A DNA stretch of 61,139 nucleotides, taken from Pseudomonas sp. B6002. Its GTDB lineage: Bacteria; Pseudomonadota; Gammaproteobacteria; Pseudomonadales; Pseudomonadaceae. The notes beneath the pieces are model-generated. The model searched no databases. It saw nothing but the letters and a program-made list of their open reading frames with translations, and was not told the DNA's origin. The DNA lies in assembly GCF_013385985.1 (NCBI RefSeq), contig NZ_JACAOY010000011.1:1-61139 (forward strand), written 5' to 3'. The translations under genes and the position numbers were made by a program. Of this stretch, positions 43,720-52,142 are shown piece after piece (within the stretch, counting starts at the first letter, position 1; every line of letters begins with the position of its first letter).

Positions 43720-43742
43720 GGGGAAATCGCAGGCAATAAAAA

Positions 43743-43770
43743 ACCGCCTTAGTAAGGGCGGTTTTTTATT
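43743..43770 (+). terminator. Rho-independent terminator after the VOC gene
   Basis: ACCGCC and GGCGGT flank a short loop and are followed by six T. Confidence 0.75.
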
Positions 43771-43800
43771 GCAAACCCAGTTAGTGGCTGGGGTTGCACT

Positions 43801-43823
43801 CTCAAAGGACGCAATCGACCCGC
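43801..43823. repeat. Upstream copy of a 23-base repeat (core GGACGCAATCGAC)
   Basis: This stretch matches 44123-44145 at 21 of 23 positions. It lacks the complementary arm that turns the downstream copy into a hairpin. Nothing else gene-like is visible between 43771 and 43980. Confidence 0.6.
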
Positions 43824-43984
43824 AGGCAGATACTAACGCCCGTCATTTCATCACGCAAGGCCGAGCGATGCCTGATAAAGCTCGCTTTACCGCATTTTTT
43901 CTGCACAGGCTCAACTGCAAAAACTTGTAATGAATCCAGCGAACGATACTGGATATTTGACCACTGTCGGACACACCTCAAACG

Positions 43985-44005
43985 AGGATCTTCGTTAGGA
44001 TCTTC
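43985..44005 (+). promoter_or_regulatory. Tandem AGGATCTTC repeats before a structured leader
   Basis: AGGATCTTC occurs at 43985-43993 and 43997-44005, a 12-base period, about 25 bases before the leader fold begins. Response regulators of the OmpR family often bind direct repeats of 10-12 bases. No regulator is identified. Confidence 0.35.
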
Positions 44006-44031
44006 CCCGTTCTGCGTTTGTCGCTTTTTGG

Positions 44032-44206
44032 GTGAGCCGGGTATGCGCGCGAATTCTGGACCGACCGCCACGGGCTAGTAATCCGTGCCGGATTGATGCG
44101 GAAGGACCATTAGCCCGGCCACCTCAATGGACGCAATCGACTCGCGTCCGAAGGCTCACGTGTTCCGGTAAGTGCGCTGGAGGTAAGGCCCAACCTAGGG
44201 AGGGCC
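44032..44206 (+). ncRNA. Candidate structured 5' leader RNA
   Basis: A long-range 7-bp stem GTGAGCC (44032-44038) / GGCTCAC (44153-44159) encloses smaller stems: CACGG (44069-44073)/CCGTG (44083-44087) and GGACGC (44129-44134)/GCGTCC (44144-44149). GGGCTA near 44073 can alternatively pair with TAGCCC near 44111. A further hairpin GGCCC (44187-44191)/GGGCC (44202-44206) takes in part of the Shine-Dalgarno of the following 32-codon ORF. No known riboswitch family was recognised. Folding was done by eye. Confidence 0.5.
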
Positions 44207-44210
44207 GAGT

Positions 44211-44309
44211 ATGTCTAAGTTTGCACGACGTACGTGGGACCTCGTAGTGAATGCCTTGCGTGTTTATCACGTGTGGACATTCCTGCGGGACAGCTTCGAT
44301 GACCTGTAA
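44211..44309 (+). CDS. Putative 32-aa small protein
   Basis: The ORF reads MSKFARRTWDLVV at the start and WTFLRDSFDDL at the end. It has an excellent Shine-Dalgarno (AGGGAGG at 44197-44203, 7 bases before ATG), a structured leader upstream and a strong terminator 14 bases after its stop, so it seems to be the only protein of its own transcript. The sequence has three tryptophan/aromatic-rich positions, a basic N-terminal part and an acidic tail (SFDDL), and could form one amphipathic helix. There is no signal peptide. I do not recognise a family, and translation is unproven. Confidence 0.55.
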   Translation: MSKFARRTWDLVVNALRVYHVWTFLRDSFDDL

Positions 44310-44323
44310 GGCCTGAGAAGTGA

Positions 44324-44358
44324 AGCCGCCTCGGTGCATGCCGAGGCGGCTTTTTTTG
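44324..44358 (+). terminator. Strong Rho-independent terminator after the 32-codon ORF
   Basis: AGCCGCCTCGG-TGCATG-CCGAGGCGGCT, an 11-bp perfect stem, is followed by a run of T. It is 6 bases from the stop of the convergent chemoreceptor gene but lacks an A-run on that side. Confidence 0.9.
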
Positions 44359-44363
44359 GTTTG

Positions 44364-46283
44364 TCAGACCCGGAAATGACTGACCATCTGCTGCAACTGG
44401 CTGCCCAAACGCGCCAGTTCCACACTCGACTTGGCGGTCTCGTCACTCGCCGTTGCGGTCTGCTCCGACACATCCCGCACATTCACGATGCTGCGACTGA
44501 TCTCTTCCGCCACGGCGCTCTGCTGCTCGGCGGCGGCCGCAATCTGCTGGTTCATCGACTGGATGTTCGACACCGTACGGGTGATGTTCTCCAGTGACAC
44601 ACCGGCCTTGCGCGTCAGTTCGACGCTGCTGTCGGTGAGGCTGCGGCTGTTGTTCATCACGTTGGCCACTTGCTGCGTGCCGTTTTGCAAACCGGCGACC
44701 AGGCCTTCGATTTCCTCGGTGGACTTCTGCGTGCGCTGGGCCAGGCCGCGCACTTCGTCGGCGACCACGGCAAACCCGCGGCCGGCCTCACCGGCCCGCG
44801 CGGCTTCGATCGCAGCGTTGAGGGCGAGCAGGTTGGTCTGTTCAGCCACGGCCTTGATCACGTCCATCACGCTGCCGATCTTGTTGCTCTCTTGCTGCAG
44901 GTGCGTCATTGCGTCCGTGGAGCGCGCCACTTCGGCGGCCAGGCGCTCGATCTGAGCGATGGCTTCGGCCACCACCTTGTCGCCTTCACGGGCTTGGCCG
45001 TCCGCGTCGGACGCGGCCTGAGAAGCTTGCTCGGCATTGCGCGCCACTTCCTGCACGGTGGCGGTCATCTCGTGCATGGCAGTGGCCACTTGATCGGTCT
45101 CGATCTTCTGGCTGTTCACGCCTGCACTGGTCTGTTCGGTCACGGCCGACAACTCTTCGGCGGCGCTGGAGATCTGCATCACGCCGTCGCGGATACCACT
45201 GATCAACTCACGCAAGGTGGTGCCCATGCGCTGGATGCCTTGTTGCAGCACGCCCAGCTCATCGCGGCGGGTCACCTGGATGTTGTGGCTCAAGTCGCCC
45301 GAGGCGATGCGTTCAACCACGGCCAGGGTGTCTTGCAGAGGGCGAGTGATCTGGCGGGTGATGACCAGGGCGGCAACGATGCCGACCAGCAGGGCCAGCA
45401 AGGTGCTGATCAGTTGCAGGCTGCGGGCTTGGGCGCTTTCCGCGTCGCGGCGGTCGAGCTGGATGTCGTAGAGCTTATCGCTGATCGAAACGATGTCAGT
45501 GCCCTGGGTGGTCATCTCGGCACGGGCAGTGACGATGTTGGCGTTGGCGGCCTTGTAGCTTTGCACGGCGGTGCGGTAAGCGCCGAGGGCGGTCTCTAGC
45601 GAGGCCAATGCCGCTTGCTGGCTGCTGCCGAACGCGGCGCTGAGATGCTTCAAGCCACTGATGGCTTTCTCGATTTGCGCGGCGGCGCGGGCTTCGGTTT
45701 CGGCGTTGACGTTGTTGGTGTAGCCGCGCACTTCGTAGCGAGCCAGTTGGAAGTCTTCCTTGGCATTGGTCACGGCCTGGTATTGCGTGTAGCGCTCGGC
45801 ACTCTCGGGCATTTGTTGCACGCTGGTGTCCAGGGCGTTGATCTGTGCGTTGGCGATGTCTGCCTTGTCGCCCATGACTTGGCGCGCAGCGCTGCCGTTG
45901 CGGTAGGCCTCGCGCATCTTGTTCAGGGACTGCTGGTACGCGGTGATGATGGTCTTCTGCTCGTTGAGCAGCTTGAGGTTTTCCGGGCTCTTGAAGCTGT
46001 CCAGCAGTTTCTGTTGCTGGGCGGCGAAGGCGTCGAGGTTGGTCTGTACGTTCTGCGCCACCGCTTCGTCGCCGTTGGCCAGCATGTATTGCAGGCGCAC
46101 GATGCGCAGCTTGGTCAGCGAGGCGTTGAGCTGGGTAATGTCGCTCATCCAGTTGCTGCGATCGATCAGGCCGCCCAGGCTGGTCCAGCCGGTCAAGGCC
46201 AGGATCGAGGTGAGGACCAGTACCAGGCCGAAGCCCAGGCCCAGTTTGAGGTTGACGCTGATGTTGCCGAACCAGCTGTTCAT
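44364..46283 (-). CDS. Methyl-accepting chemotaxis protein, helical bimodular-type sensor
   Basis: The 639-aa chemoreceptor has a transmembrane helix at residues 12-33, a long helical periplasmic domain to about 290, a second helix ([20 protein letters not shown]), a HAMP domain, and the signalling tip [20 protein letters not shown]. Length and helical sensor resemble the HBM-domain receptors of P. putida such as McpS, which sense organic acids; the ligand here is inferred only. There is no C-terminal CheR-binding pentapeptide. The ATG at 46283 starts just before helix 1. Confidence 0.9.
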
Positions 46284-46448: not shown

Positions 46449-49400
46449 TCATCCGGCCACTTGTGTTAACCCCATGCCTCTTGGGGGAGGGGTTTTGAGC
46501 GCCTCGACCAATTGAGACAAGTAGTAGAAGCGCAGGGGGCTGAAGGATTCCCAGCGCTCGACGAAGTACTGGCCCTTGTCGTCGATTTGAATCGGCGTGG
46601 TGAGAATTTCATTGCTGCGCGAGAAGTGCACAAGATTGGCCTCACCGTCAGTGGGGCGCTCGATAAAGAACTGCCCGGGCGTCGTCAGCTTGCTGCGGTC
46701 CGGCAACGGTTCGACGGGGGGCAGCGGCCGCCCTGCAATGCCCACTTCAACGCGGTAGTCGCTGCGCAAGGCCACGCCATAGCGCTCGTCACCCATCTGC
46801 CAGCCAGCGCTGTGCAATGGCTTGGCCAGTTCTGGCACGGTATCGCGCACATGCAGGCTGACAGCATCCTGCAACTGCGCGATGCCCGGTACGCCGACAT
46901 ACATGTCTGTGTGTGTACTGCTCATGAACGCCACCCACTTATGCGGACCAAGGGCCTGTTGGTCCGCGCTGATTACCTGGTTGGCAAAGTAGCTGAACAG
47001 CCGGGCGCGGGAGTTCTGCTCACTAAGGCCTTTGACGTGATAGCTGGCGGTACAGTCCAGCGCACGGATGCGCAGCCCATATTTGTTCGCAGCCTTGATT
47101 ACGTTGGTGAAGGTGTCCGGGCCGTGGTATCGCGGCATGTGGCCCGCGTCCAGGCTGAACAGGTAGTCCTTCAAGATGTCCGGCATTTTCAGCGTGCGCT
47201 GATAGGTCTCCAGCGCTGTCTGGTGCAGGTCGGTAAGCAGGTGCTCCATGTACAGCGTTTTCACGCCTTGTTTTTTCAGGTGCTTGAAGCTGTCGATCAG
47301 CAGTCGCTTGCTGGAGCGTGCGATATGGGCTTCGCCGATGACCAGGCCGAGTTTTTGTTGATACAGGCGTTCAATGAATACCGTTTCACTGCTCGTCGTG
47401 GCCAGGTTCGCCGGCAAACTGCGCGGGGGCAATGTGAGCTCGTTGAAAAATACCTTGGCCTTGTCCGAAAGCCGCTGCCGGATTTCGCTGAAGGTGAACT
47501 GCACGGCGGCATGCCTTGGATTGACGTGTGTGTAGTGTGTGTCGAGGCCGTGACGGGTGTGTCTGATCAGTTCAATATCGCCGCGAATATCCAGGGGCAG
47601 GTCGAACTCGGTGTAATGGCTGACAGCGACCGCCGGCGTGCCCGACGTACTGGGGCTGGGCAACGTGACGTGGGTGGTTGGCAGGGCCAAGATGAAGTCA
47701 CCGCGAGACTGCACGCGGGTGGAGGTGTCTGGCCACACGCCGATGCGCTGGCCGGGTGCGGCGTCTTCAACCCGCAGGGCCGGGGTATTTTGTAGATCTG
47801 CCAGGCCCGCGACCTGTTCATGAGTGCCCAGGCGGTTGGAGTCCACCAGCGCCACCCAGCCTTCGCCGGGGTTGTTTTTCAGGTTCTGCTCAATCACCGA
47901 GTGGGAGTAGAAATTGCGCAGCTTGCTGCTGCGGGGAATGAAGCGCGGGCCATCCCCCAGAGCCAGTACGTGCTCCATATGGTACGAGGCGGACCCGTCG
48001 ATGCCATCGATGGCGATATTCAAGCGTTGGGTTTCCAGCAGCAATTTTCGATAAGTGAAGGGGGCATCGGCCGTGAGCCCCAGGGTTTGATCGACTTGAA
48101 TCAGATGCCGCTCGATCTGTGTCAGCGCCTGAGCCTTGCTGCCGCTGAGCTGATTGTTGAGGACCTTCAGCTTGCGGTGGAACAGGTCGCGGGGCAGGTT
48201 TTCGATATAGACGCGCTTGAGCCCCTGTTCGGCCAGCGCAGGCAGTTGTTCGATCAACAGTTGCTTGCTGGCAATGGAGCTGTCGAGGGCGCCGATGATC
48301 AGGCGCTTGTTGCGATTGAACAGGGGCTTGAGGATGTCCGCAGGTGCGGCATCGACGGCGAACGCGGGCAAGGGGGATTTGGGCGCGACAGTGGGTAACG
48401 CCTGGAAGAAGGCGTCGGCGCGCTGGTTCAGCCGCTCGACGTGCTTGGCGTACGCCGTGCGCAACGGGGCCGCTTCCGTGAAGGCATTACCTTGGGCTGC
48501 ACCACCATATTCGGTCCCCATCCCCTCAAGGCGGGCCTTGAACTCCGGGTCAAGCAACGTGCGGAAGGTCTTGGCTTGCTCGGGCGCGACGTCGAACACT
48601 TCCAAGGGGCTGCTCTCGTCGGCCAACAATGTTTCGTATTTCTTGCGCCCGCCACCGACCAAGCCGGAACGCACCCATTGGCCGTCGGCATTGCGGTTGA
48701 CCAACCGTGTGGTGGACAGCAAATGGCCGCTCTGCGGGTCATGGCGATACAGCAAATAACGGCCCAGTGCATCCGGGGTGTGTGACGCCCACAGTGAGTT
48801 TCCATCGAACAGTACCGGCTGCATGCCCTCGGGTTTGAGCACGTCTAGCTGGCTGAGCACGGCGTTGTCGGCAGCTTGCGTGCTGGTGCGGATCGTCGGG
48901 CGCAGTGACTTGAAGGCGCCCTTCAATGCCGGGCGCGCGTCGAACAACAGCGCGCCGCCCATATTGGCCAGGTAGCCGAGATAGTGTTGCAGGGCGCTGT
49001 CTGTGTCGTTCTGGTGGTAGGCGTTGAGGGCGAGCATGGCGTCCTTGAAGGCCAGTAGCCCCCCCAGGGTCAGGCTGAGCAGTGGGAACGGCATGGTGGC
49101 TACGGCGGTCAGCCACTCGACGCAGGTCCAGAGAACGCCGGTGATCATCTGGAGCCGATTGACTGTCGTTGCGTGCACGTCATCGATCTTGCGTTGCAGG
49201 TTCATGTTGTAGAACTCATGGCGCAAATCGGTCAGCGGCGTGGTGTGCTGGATGCTGTCATGTCGGGCAGGGCTGGGGGTGGTGCGGTCGATTTCGACTG
49301 GCAACCCTTTACGAGCGGTTTTCAGGAACTGCGCAATCCGTGCCTTTGACTGCAGCGGTACCCGCGCGCCCCAATAAGCAGGCATGCCCTCGACTTTTTT

Positions 49401-52142
49401 GAGCAGGTAGTTGAACAGCTTGGCCTCGCGCCAACTAATGCCGTCCGGCGCATCAGGGGTATAAAGCAGTATCGGGTTGTCGCCGTGGCTGAACAGGTAG
49501 TTGCCGATGACCCAGTCCCCATCAATGGACAGCCGGTGCACCCTGTAGGTGTGGCGCTCGGTGTTGCCGCTGTCGGAAAGCCTTTCGATGGCCTGCTCCA
49601 GCCAGGCCTGGTCAGCCTGAGTGAGATGCCCTTGCAGGCGGGACTCCAGAGCAGCGCTTTTCATCTGTAGTTGCACGATTGCCAACACGGCAGTGCGTCG
49701 TTCGTCATAGCCTGGGCTGTCGCTGTTTTGCAGGCGTCGGCGGATTTCGTCGGTATAGCGTTGACCGATCCAGACGCCCGTGACGGAGCGTGCGACGTTC
49801 TGCGCAGTCAACGGGCTCAGGTCTACGTTGGGTGGGCCGCGGAAGGTCGCGGAAGTTGAGAATTTTTCATTGAGAAAGCCGATGCCGTCTTCATACCCAT
49901 CGCGATACAGCGTGGTGTACGACACTGGCGTCGCCGCAGCGCCGACCAGTGGTTTGGGTGCATAGGCAAATACTGTATCCGGGTCAATATCGTTTTGCTG
50001 GCGACCTAACAGCCGGTTGAGACTGAGCCTGGCTTGGTCATGCAGGTAGCGTTCAAACGCAGGGACGCTGGATTCTGCGTCCGGCCGGGCGTTGTAGACA
50101 CGCAGTGCGCCCGCGGCATCATCGGCCAGGCTTGCCAGGCGGCTGCGGTCACTGACAGAGGCCGTACGGTACCAGGCCGGCGAGCTGAACTCGTAGTCAT
50201 CCAACTGTATCGTCAGTTGGTGCGCGGCTATCGCTTCCAGGCAGTCGGTATAGGTGCTCGGTTTGCCGAAGGTTACTTCCAGATGCTCGTTGACGTCAGG
50301 GCGCAGGCTGATACTGCGCAGGAAGTCACGCATCTTTGGCCTGAAACGCCGCGGCACCTGTTCCAGCAGGTACTCGCTCATGGTGCGCCCGTTGAGGCGA
50401 GCCTTGCTGTCCGTCCAGCCGATGATATGGGTCTGGCATTCGCGCAGCGTGTTGAATGCGATGAACTGTTGGACGCTCGGTGCATCGGGCGTACACAGCA
50501 GCAAGCGTTTGACCTGGCCCTGGCTGTCTTCTTCGCGCAGCAGCCACAGGTCCTTGAGTTGTGCGCCGTGGAGCAACACGGTCTGGGCGTACAAAGGTTG
50601 ACGTGTGTTTTTTTGCAGGTCCTCAAAGCGTTTGAAATCAGCCTGGTTCAGATGGCCTTGCAGCCGGGCGACGTTGGCCATGAGCGTCAGGCGCTGATGG
50701 AAGAACCCGCGTGCCGCCAGCTTGATTTGTGGAGTGGCCAGTGCCGTTTTCAGCGTGATGGCGAAGTCCAAACGCGGTTGCAGGTCTTGCAGCAGCATAA
50801 GCAGGGTTTGCACGTTGAGATGGGCGTGGGCCACACGGAGCGGCGCACCGGCGTAGCTCAGGGTGCTGCGCTCGAGGAATGCCGAACCGGGTGTACTGTC
50901 GCCAGGATGCAGGCCGCGCAGGGTCAACTCCACCAATGAGCGTTGCTGGTTGTAGGTGCCGACCTGAGGCACCGTACGAGCGGTGGTGATGTGCAGCAGG
51001 TCCGGGTCCAGGTCGTGGATATCCAGCTCATCGGCCAGTTGCTCAGCCCATTGATGGCGGGCCAGTGCCTGAGGGGTCGCGGCAGGGCCGAACAGATCGA
51101 GGAAAGCCTGGCGAGCCGTGTTGTAGCGGTGCAGGTGCTGGTCAATGGTCGTGCGCTCGAGCCTGTTGGCGCTGCGATACCAATCGGGCAGGGCCTTGAA
51201 CAGGTTGCGCTCAAGCAGGCGCTGGGCGCGAAAGTCCAGGCGCGCCGTGAGGTCGGGCAGCGCGGCGTGTAGAGCGTCGTCAAGGTGTTGCTTGAGCTGG
51301 GTGGCATTCAGCTGAGCGTTTTCGGCCAGGGTCAGGGCGTGGTGGATGTCTTTTTTGCGCTTTTCGAGCACGGCTTGATAGGCGTGTTCGAACAGCGGTT
51401 GATCCGTGATTGGTTGCAGAGCCAGCGGCCAGATATCGGTGATGGCCAGGTGCTGATACCGCACCGGCAAATGACGGCTGAATTCAGCGTGGCCGCTGCG
51501 CAGTGCCATGGTTTGCAGCAGGCCGCGGTCGAGTTCTTGCAAGGTAGCGAAGGCTTCCAGCCCGCGTGAGGGCGTGAAGAGCAGCACCGGCCCGACGCTC
51601 GCGTCGCCGCTCAGGCTGTCAACATGTGGGTTGGCCTGGCGTGTCAGCACGAACGCCCCGGCGAATTCGATGCGCTCGTCCTGGTAATCGAAGGTCAAGG
51701 CGTACAGGCCGGGGCGTAACGCCGGAGGTCGGGAGCAGTCTTCCAGCATCTGCAGGTCGGAGGGGGATAGCAGGGCATCACTGACGTTAAGCCGGGTTTC
51801 CTGTTCCAACGCTTTGATGCCGGCGGTGTCGGTCAGGTAGGTCTTGCGGCTCTGACCATTGACGGCACTGGTGTCATCCAGATCTTGCAGTTGGGTGGCG
51901 AGGCGGGTTTTCAGTGGGCTCAGTTGGCTGGGGTCGCTCAGGTCCAGCCCCTGATAAAAGGCGCTGGCCTGAGTCATGTAGGCCAGGTTGATGCGCTTGA
52001 GGGTGGTGTTGAGGGTGTCCAGTGCCAGCCGCTCGGCTGGCAGGGTGACGGGGCGCCGACTGTAAGGGCGCAGTGTCGGATCGATTTCCAGCAGATGGCT
52101 ATGGATTTGTTGCAGGGCAAGCGGGTTATTCGGCGTACTCAT
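46449..52142 (-). CDS. Giant DUF6543/dermonecrotic-toxin-like protein with two ChaN/EreA-like modules
   Basis: The 1897-aa protein has an N-terminal half like the Pseudomonas DUF6543 (dermonecrotic toxin) proteins, with three LL-x-TP segments (LLFTPSRG near 186, LLLCTPDAP near 548, ILLYTPDAP near 892) and two RLQGHLxQAD units near 490 and 834. A hydrophobic stretch lies at about 1002-1035. Two related C-terminal modules follow: 1275-1460 and 1597-1795. The second keeps GEAH (1603-1606), MEHLLTD, DCTASYH and SSTHTD, as in ChaN/EreA/TIKI-like enzymes or membrane-targeted effector domains. The first has GALD (1284-1287) instead. No signal peptide, immunity gene or secretion gene is seen. Target unknown; effector/toxin role is inferred. 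Confidence 0.75.
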   Translation of the reverse strand: MSTPNNPLALQQIHSHLLEIDPTLRPYSRRPVTLPAERLALDTLNTTLKRINLAYMTQASAFYQGLDLSDPSQLSPLKTRLATQLQDLDDTSAVNGQSRKTYLTDTAGIKALEQETRLNVSDALLSPSDLQMLEDCSRPPALRPGLYALTFDYQDERIEFAGAFVLTRQANPHVDSLSGDASVGPVLLFTPSRGLEAFATLQELDRGLLQTMALRSGHAEFSRHLPVRYQHLAITDIWPLALQPITDQPLFEHAYQAVLEKRKKDIHHALTLAENAQLNATQLKQHLDDALHAALPDLTARLDFRAQRLLERNLFKALPDWYRSANRLERTTIDQHLHRYNTARQAFLDLFGPAATPQALARHQWAEQLADELDIHDLDPDLLHITTARTVPQVGTYNQQRSLVELTLRGLHPGDSTPGSAFLERSTLSYAGAPLRVAHAHLNVQTLLMLLQDLQPRLDFAITLKTALATPQIKLAARGFFHQRLTLMANVARLQGHLNQADFKRFEDLQKNTRQPLYAQTVLLHGAQLKDLWLLREEDSQGQVKRLLLCTPDAPSVQQFIAFNTLRECQTHIIGWTDSKARLNGRTMSEYLLEQVPRRFRPKMRDFLRSISLRPDVNEHLEVTFGKPSTYTDCLEAIAAHQLTIQLDDYEFSSPAWYRTASVSDRSRLASLADDAAGALRVYNARPDAESSVPAFERYLHDQARLSLNRLLGRQQNDIDPDTVFAYAPKPLVGAAATPVSYTTLYRDGYEDGIGFLNEKFSTSATFRGPPNVDLSPLTAQNVARSVTGVWIGQRYTDEIRRRLQNSDSPGYDERRTAVLAIVQLQMKSAALESRLQGHLTQADQAWLEQAIERLSDSGNTERHTYRVHRLSIDGDWVIGNYLFSHGDNPILLYTPDAPDGISWREAKLFNYLLKKVEGMPAYWGARVPLQSKARIAQFLKTARKGLPVEIDRTTPSPARHDSIQHTTPLTDLRHEFYNMNLQRKIDDVHATTVNRLQMITGVLWTCVEWLTAVATMPFPLLSLTLGGLLAFKDAMLALNAYHQNDTDSALQHYLGYLANMGGALLFDARPALKGAFKSLRPTIRTSTQAADNAVLSQLDVLKPEGMQPVLFDGNSLWASHTPDALGRYLLYRHDPQSGHLLSTTRLVNRNADGQWVRSGLVGGGRKKYETLLADESSPLEVFDVAPEQAKTFRTLLDPEFKARLEGMGTEYGGAAQGNAFTEAAPLRTAYAKHVERLNQRADAFFQALPTVAPKSPLPAFAVDAAPADILKPLFNRNKRLIIGALDSSIASKQLLIEQLPALAEQGLKRVYIENLPRDLFHRKLKVLNNQLSGSKAQALTQIERHLIQVDQTLGLTADAPFTYRKLLLETQRLNIAIDGIDGSASYHMEHVLALGDGPRFIPRSSKLRNFYSHSVIEQNLKNNPGEGWVALVDSNRLGTHEQVAGLADLQNTPALRVEDAAPGQRIGVWPDTSTRVQSRGDFILALPTTHVTLPSPSTSGTPAVAVSHYTEFDLPLDIRGDIELIRHTRHGLDTHYTHVNPRHAAVQFTFSEIRQRLSDKAKVFFNELTLPPRSLPANLATTSSETVFIERLYQQKLGLVIGEAHIARSSKRLLIDSFKHLKKQGVKTLYMEHLLTDLHQTALETYQRTLKMPDILKDYLFSLDAGHMPRYHGPDTFTNVIKAANKYGLRIRALDCTASYHVKGLSEQNSRARLFSYFANQVISADQQALGPHKWVAFMSSTHTDMYVGVPGIAQLQDAVSLHVRDTVPELAKPLHSAGWQMGDERYGVALRSDYRVEVGIAGRPLPPVEPLPDRSKLTTPGQFFIERPTDGEANLVHFSRSNEILTTPIQIDDKGQYFVERWESFSPLRFYYLSQLVEALKTPPPRGMGLTQVAG

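What the first reader, a model, noticed from the sequence alone, without database searches (positions are those of the whole stretch)
44032..44358. Structured leader, 32-codon ORF and terminator: an undescribed-looking small-protein unit
Between a VOC gene and a chemoreceptor gene lies a self-contained unit. A long-range stem GTGAGCC/GGCTCAC encloses two hairpins; then comes a hairpin overlapping a strong AGGGAGG; then a 32-aa ORF, then an 11-bp terminator. A small protein whose ribosome site is part of a fold suggests regulated translation, by ligand, ion, temperature or sRNA. I recognise neither the RNA nor the peptide.
Basis: partly seen in the sequence, partly recalled or inferred. Interest (0 to 1): 0.72.

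Follow-up and report, generated by a model that had tools for sequence, protein, structure and literature searches.

The report
Pseudomonas small-toxin gene with RNA antidote
This stretch carries a gene for a 32-residue peptide next to a tiny RNA that matches and probably silences its message; the same pairing recurs in many Pseudomonas genomes in differently coded versions and looks like a new family of self-poison-and-antidote systems.

Summary
The small-protein unit is real, but it is half of a larger locus. About 390 nt upstream of the start codon, on the other strand, the window encodes an ~86-nt sRNA (about 43823 to 43738) with promoter, hairpin and terminator. Its first 23 nt can pair with the peptide's mRNA leader (44123-44145). 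I collected 117 distinct tblastn matches; 112 keep a full-length ORF, and 110 of these have an sRNA of the same family nearby. The pairing segment differs between loci, but both sides change together: own-pair score sum 1183 against a maximum of 716 in 10,000 permutations, 71 copies. The ORF is under purifying selection. Copies lie on chromosomes, near a phage portal gene and on six plasmids. sRNA-only loci occur repeatedly; only two toxin-only copies were seen. Best reading: a new Pseudomonas family of type I toxin-antitoxin, working like tisB/istR or zor/orz but without a sequence match to known families, and with an amphipathic, not clearly transmembrane, peptide. Expression and toxicity are untested.

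The parts
43853..43858 (-). predicted -35 (TTGCGT) of the sRNA promoter
   Evidence: sequence; promoter pattern in 103 of 105 copies against 3.5 shuffled (pattern recalled sigma-70 consensus)
43830..43835 (-). predicted -10 (TAGTAT) of the sRNA promoter, 17-nt spacer
   Evidence: the -10 usually ends 5-7 nt before the pairing segment
43738..43823 (-). antitoxin sRNA, about 86 nt (ends predicted): 5' pairing segment, hairpin, terminator
   Evidence: covariance model R1 hit 43736-43824 (the window copy is one of the 38 sequences in the model); folds: central hairpin in 87 of 90 and terminator in 90 of 90 non-redundant copies
43801..43823 (-). sRNA pairing segment (guide)
   Evidence: direct repeat of 44123-44145, 20 of 23 identical letters; duplex -45.4 kcal/mol
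43996..44001 (+). predicted -10 (TAGGAT) of the toxin mRNA; a conserved ACACCT lies at the -35 distance and is not a sigma-70 -35
   Evidence: group A alignment
44008..44210 (+). structured leader of the toxin mRNA (start predicted)
44036..44119 (+). leader helix P1: 44036-44041 with 44114-44119
   Evidence: 84.3% of cells paired, 4 of 6 pairs changed on both sides
44069..44087 (+). leader hairpin P3: 44069-44073 with 44083-44087
   Evidence: 96.1% of cells paired
44088..44168 (+). long-range leader helix 44088-44092 with 44164-44168, enclosing the sRNA target
   Evidence: 97.3% of cells paired; compensated in L063
44123..44145 (+). sRNA target site, 88 to 66 nt upstream of the start codon
44179..44183 (+). 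conserved GGAGG outside the hairpin, candidate ribosome standby element (function inferred)
   Evidence: invariant or nearly invariant in A4
44187..44206 (+). hairpin over the Shine-Dalgarno
   Evidence: pattern in 106 of 112 copies
44211..44309 (+). 32-aa peptide gene, presumptive toxin
44324..44358 (+). intrinsic terminator

Best explanation
A type I toxin-antitoxin locus of a new family that seems confined to Pseudomonas. The + strand mRNA has a ~200-nt folded leader and encodes a 32-aa amphipathic helix, presumptively growth-inhibiting. Its Shine-Dalgarno sits in a hairpin, so ribosomes probably load first on an upstream standby region (about 44146-44186, with GGAGG) and then reach the start codon. 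A divergent ~86-nt sRNA pairs through its 5' end with 44123-44145, blocking standby loading or the long-range leader helix and probably exposing the duplex to RNase III. Shown by computation: ORF family and its selection, sRNA architecture and promoter pattern, locus-specific covarying complementarity, conserved ribosome-site hairpin and leader helices. Inferred: transcription, toxicity, target, standby mechanism, RNase III.
For: Own-locus guide/target score median 18 against 7 for 3484 sampled cross-locus pairs; at least 13 in 101 of 117 against 235 of 3484. Without selecting on the repeat: 71 group A copies, own sum 1183, permuted mean 582, maximum 716 of 10,000; among 772 ordered pairs of close relatives own beats swapped in 659, ties in 88, loses in 25. 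Duplex energy own median -42.3 (105), cross -23.2 (1247) (set selected for the repeat); in 19 genomes or plasmids with two or more copies own -42.3, cross -22.45 (46 pairs). Promoter pattern 103 of 105 against 3.5 shuffled. Ribosome-site hairpin 106 of 112. pN/pS A 0.26, B 0.17, C 0.55, D 0.10, E 0.46. 110 of 112 full-length ORFs have an R1 sRNA in their locus; exceptions L064, L078 (the model was built from 38 of these sRNAs). sRNAs without a family ORF: L056, L060, L061, L065, L066, L067, L072, L074, L080, L084 and, with no matching target within 620 nt, L202, L211, L213, L216, L222, L223. Six plasmids, portal neighbour in L082, tandem copies in L044 and L057.
Against: No growth, RNA or ribosome data. 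The peptide lacks a clear transmembrane segment (best 19-residue Kyte-Doolittle mean 0.67; 1.09 at most in six family peptides), unlike most membrane-acting type I toxins (PMC8309996, passages). Guide/target differences do not favour wobble-keeping changes: 43 against 36 breaking transitions, p 0.5. In group A 29 of 71 guides score some other locus's target higher than their own, usually by a few points. Five of 19 genomes have a paralogue duplex of -31 kcal/mol or stronger, the own genome included (-36.0 against own -45.4), so orthogonality is incomplete. An excess of sRNA-only loci could also arise if the peptide is merely dispensable. Both toxin-only copies: L064 matches the unit only from 44176 on, L078 diverges in the 5' half of the leader, so silence is likely but not shown.
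Confidence: 0.82

Rival explanations
1. A non-toxic small regulatory or membrane-associated protein whose translation is controlled by a dedicated antisense sRNA; the same RNA logic without a toxin.
For: Toxicity is untested; the peptide is not strongly hydrophobic; 47 of 117 copies sit at one conserved glyoxalase-chemoreceptor place, like a settled chromosomal gene.
Against: Plasmid copies, tandem copies, dispersed places (61 of 117 with neither neighbour), sRNA-only remnants and 110 of 112 ORFs keeping an sRNA are what addiction modules show; diversified pairing segments are described for zor/orz (PMC11264685, passages).
Confidence: 0.13
2. A cis-acting sensor leader (riboswitch, thermosensor, ion sensor) controlling a small protein.
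For: Conserved leader helices and a hidden ribosome site.
Against: Rfam gathering search negative; the covarying partner of the leader lies in a separate divergent RNA; the most changeable part of the otherwise conserved leader middle is the pairing site (mean conservation 0.82 against 0.89 and 0.93 on its two sides).
Confidence: 0.02
3. A spreading repeat family (REP/MITE-like DNA) with no gene function.
For: Multicopy and dispersed; remnants with REP-like sequence after codon 5 (REP motif recalled).
Against: Reading frame under purifying selection; locus-specific covariation of two separated 20-nt segments; promoter pattern conserved.
Confidence: 0.03

Closest known systems
zorO-orzO (type I TA, E. 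coli)
   Same: Small peptide, long leader, antitoxin sRNA whose pairing region varies between loci (proposed to prevent cross-talk), orz-only loci, suspected standby site with a GAG core (PMC11264685, passages).
   Different: OrzO-P model only 20.2 bits against a cutoff of 60 on the sRNA strand; peptide without NCBIfam or Pfam match; own conserved leader helices.
tisB/istR-1 (type I TA, E. coli)
   Same: Antisense sRNA that pairs at a ribosome standby site upstream of the toxin's ribosome site (PMC11264685, passages).
   Different: tisB is LexA-controlled; here CTG-N10-CAG occurs in 9 of 113 promoters against 4.5 expected (motif recalled).
dinQ/agrB (type I TA, E. coli)
   Same: AgrB is the highest-scoring sub-threshold Rfam hit on the sRNA strand (27.3 bits, E 0.022).
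   Different: Below the cutoff of 40; much of the match is the terminator hairpin.
timP/timR (type I TA, enterobacteria)
   Same: A pseudoknot in the toxin mRNA is needed for translation and is broken by the sRNA (PMC11228461, abstract); here a conserved long-range helix encloses the target.
   Different: Pseudoknot function untested here; peptides not compared directly.
hok-sok in P. syringae
   Same: The only type I system reported in a survey of 339 P. syringae genomes (PMC8790059, passages).
   Different: Not compared directly; the survey's list of type I families does not include this one. P. syringae and P. viridiflava records do carry it (L144, L154, L159).

Membership tests
type I toxin-antitoxin (general) | small protein under about 60 aa, maintained by selection | tested here: met
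   31-38 aa; pN/pS 0.10-0.55 within groups A-E
type I toxin-antitoxin (general) | nearby sRNA gene with own promoter and terminator | tested here: met
   by sequence only:
type I toxin-antitoxin (general) | sRNA complementary to the toxin mRNA, specific to the locus | tested here: met
   specificity incomplete
type I toxin-antitoxin (general) | protein inhibits growth and the sRNA prevents this | not testable with these tools
   needs expression
type I toxin-antitoxin (membrane class) | hydrophobic peptide with a transmembrane helix | tested here: not met
   best KD19 mean 0.22-1.09 in six family peptides, hydrophobic moment 0.50-0.66: amphipathic; Kyte-Doolittle only, no dedicated predictor
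zor/orz | match to the Rfam OrzO-P model | tested here: not met
   20.2 bits, cutoff 60; no gathering match in 16 loci
tisB/istR | LexA box at the toxin promoter | tested here: not met
   9 of 113 against 4.5 expected
tisB/istR | translation through a standby site blocked by the sRNA | not testable with these tools
   only a conserved GGAGG and hidden ribosome site seen
dinQ/agrB | match to the Rfam AgrB model | tested here: not met
   27.3 bits, cutoff 40
timP/timR | pseudoknot needed for translation | not testable with these tools
   conserved long-range helix only

The most novel reading that the evidence does not exclude
Pseudomonas carries a large unreported superfamily of type I toxin-antitoxin loci in which a standard sRNA and leader chassis bears an exchangeable ~20-nt barcode, diversified so that paralogues on chromosomes, prophages and plasmids largely ignore one another, joined to a non-transmembrane amphipathic toxin whose nearly invariant LRD motif suggests a specific target rather than plain membrane damage.
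Probability: 0.4. Interest if true: 0.85.

Novelty: new variant of a known kind. Interest (0 to 1): 0.74.

Why it matters
[quoted passage not shown] syringae genomes found only hok-sok (PMC8790059, passages). A family found in 87 of 399 sampled genomes of the genus and on plasmids would change that picture. Over a hundred natural sRNA-target pairs on one chassis (105 extracted) make two open questions directly testable: how antisense specificity diverges without losing repression, and how much pairing suffices to avoid cross-talk between paralogues. Such pairs could also serve as a source of orthogonal RNA regulators for Pseudomonas.

Tried and rejected
Null result: the expected bias of guide/target differences towards wobble pairs is absent. 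RNAalifold on the sRNA alignment found only the terminator helix, because the central hairpin is misaligned between subfamilies; its presence rests on single-sequence folds. A first set of named leader helices was misplaced by my own coordinate error and redone. A first repeat scan with wobble-friendly scoring was replaced by a symmetric one. Paper searches that gave nothing on this family: (listings; passages read in PMC5521070, PMC9424990, PMC8790059, PMC11264685, PMC8309996; abstract and outline of PMC11228461).

Full report
What was reported and what is there. The ORF (44211-44309), the Shine-Dalgarno in a hairpin, and the terminator are all present, and 44020-44370 folds better than 100 of 100 shuffles. 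No Pfam, NCBIfam or Rfam family matches the unit.

The unit is one of many. The own genome holds a second copy on another contig (83% over 361 nt). By DNA similarity 76 of 399 sampled genomes of the genus have a match, own included (only two candidates per genome were scored, so this is a lower bound on copies). With a 19-protein profile 87 of 399 have one at E 0.01 or better, but only 4 of 293 genomes in the order, 3 of them the own genus and the fourth marginal at E 0.003. Named records include P. orientalis, P. lactis, P. syringae, P. viridiflava, P. poae, P. simiae, P. gingeri and P. fluorescens (54 loci), plus six Pseudomonas plasmids, none with the peptide annotated (E 3e-5 to 0.8). The weakest plasmid hit (L198) is supported by its own perfect 21-nt guide/target repeat. 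A gut-phage record also carries a copy (L199).

The peptide. 117 distinct matches were gathered from 199 loci, 112 with a full-length ORF of 31-38 residues. Five groups plus singletons share an N-terminal basic amphipathic helix and a near-invariant LRD motif. Synonymous differences exceed nonsynonymous ones within every group tested (pN/pS A 0.26, B 0.17, C 0.55, D 0.10, E 0.46 with 3 sequences; between groups 0.29-0.70). The window peptide is amphipathic (moment 0.66) with no clear transmembrane segment. A second divergent type (MR[LF][FI]KLSCRAAWE...) lies about 740-770 nt downstream of a group C copy in L063 and on plasmid pD4A-46 (L197), each with its own guide/target repeat.

The missing half: a divergent sRNA. 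A weak Rfam hint on the minus strand (AgrB 27.3 bits, OrzO-P 20.2, both below cutoff) and a 13-nt exact repeat seen by eye led to the test. Upstream of the ORF, mostly 385-410 nt before the start, lies a near-exact repeat of the leader segment at about -90 to -66. With symmetric scoring the own-locus score is at least 13 in 101 of 117 copies, against 235 of 3484 sampled cross-locus pairs (medians 18 and 7). In 71 group A copies with fixed windows and no selection for the repeat, the own-pair sum is 1183; 10,000 permutations average 582 with maximum 716; among 772 ordered pairs of close relatives own beats swapped 659 times, ties 88, loses 25. So the two segments change together although they are about 320 nt apart, as expected of an RNA and its target.

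The upstream segment is the 5' end of an sRNA. In 105 extracted copies a promoter pattern precedes it on the minus strand in 103 (3.5 in shuffles), with the -10 usually ending 5-7 nt before the segment. Folds show a central hairpin in 87 of 90 and a terminator in 90 of 90 non-redundant sequences. A covariance model finds it at 43736-43824 and at the second own-genome copy, and in the locus of 110 of 112 full-length ORFs, with two sRNAs wherever the locus has two copies; 38 of the sequences built the model, so those match by construction. Weak model matches in many genomes (99 of 120 at E 0.001) are probably terminators alone and are not counted.

Pairing and specificity. Predicted duplexes have a median of -42.3 kcal/mol for own pairs (105) and -23.2 for cross pairs (1247). 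Within 19 genomes or plasmids with several copies, own is -42.3 and paralogue cross -22.45 (46 pairs); five of the 19, the own genome included, have a cross duplex of -31 or stronger. In group A, 29 of 71 guides score some other locus's target above their own. Orthogonality is therefore a tendency, not absolute. Wobble-keeping differences are not preferred (43 against 36).

The leader. On 52 leaders five helices hold: P1, a variable P2 (68.6% paired), P3, a long-range helix enclosing the target, and the ribosome-site hairpin; together 86.4% of cells pair and 14 of 27 pairs change on both sides, 0 of 500 shuffles reaching either (structure named from this alignment). The hairpin over the Shine-Dalgarno is present by pattern in 106 of 112 copies, and the divergent type builds it from other letters. 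A conserved GGAGG lies outside it at 44179-44183.

Places and decay. 47 of 117 copies lie between the same glyoxalase-like and chemoreceptor genes as in the window, 9 beside a chemoreceptor only, 61 elsewhere (glyoxalase named). Neighbours elsewhere include a phage portal gene (L082) and a KorA/TrfB-like repressor (L062); plasmid L193 has ParB and TrfB-like genes nearby. Ten loci keep the sRNA but no family ORF, four of them clearly with REP-like sequence after codon 5, and six further sRNAs have no matching target downstream. Several remnants begin exactly at the target (query 119-137), as if the promoters had been lost by recombination between the two repeat copies (inference). Only two full-length ORFs lack an sRNA, L064 and L078, and both have an altered leader.

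Mechanism. The anatomy is that of a type I toxin-antitoxin locus of the standby type: hidden ribosome site, exposed upstream loading region, antisense sRNA pairing far upstream. tisB/istR-1 and zor/orz work so or are thought to (PMC11264685, passages), and a leader pseudoknot serves timP (PMC11228461, abstract). I infer that the sRNA blocks standby loading or the long-range helix. No promoter control was identified: no LexA box is conserved, and the conserved ACACCT at the -35 distance of the mRNA promoter is unexplained.

Verdict. The paired architecture (sRNA plus target plus coding ORF) is nearly certain from comparison; that the peptide is a toxin is likely but untested. It works like known type I systems, is not a member of those tested, and the hydrophobic transmembrane feature of the membrane class is not met. 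I found no report of it in the searches listed.

Noticed in passing
L063 (rc 3132 and 3900) and plasmid locus L197 (4001 and 4742): Two different toxin types stand 740-770 nt apart in tandem, each with its own sRNA; the second type (38 aa) uses unrelated letters for the same ribosome-site hairpin.
   Followed up: partly
L194 4290-4372 (-) and L097 2722-2804 (+): A second sRNA of the family beside the first copy (plasmid pPT14-32 and a near-identical chromosomal or plasmid stretch) with no recognised toxin: a possible further toxin type under an annotated hypothetical gene.
   Followed up: no
L098 4405-4490, L100 1824-1909, L070 2464-2549: Prophage-type C4 antisense RNA (RF01695) within about 0.5-1.4 kb of three copies.
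   Followed up: no
L060, L061, L065, L072 after codon 5 of the toxin ORF: Toxin ORF interrupted by a REP-like palindromic sequence (motif recalled) while the sRNA remains intact.
   Followed up: partly
L219 (G072 C3:14419 and 56859): sRNA with a 22-nt matching target and a still more divergent ORF ending ...AYEFIRDHWKDWF; two copies in one genome.
   Followed up: no
window 43970-43978: Conserved ACACCT block at the -35 distance of the group A toxin promoter, not a sigma-70 -35; its regulator is unknown.
   Followed up: no
window 43737-43772: Hairpin terminator with T runs on both strands, shared by the glyoxalase-like gene and the sRNA.
   Followed up: no
window 46449-52142 (-): Very large ORF of 1897 aa next to the chemoreceptor gene, function not examined.
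   Followed up: no
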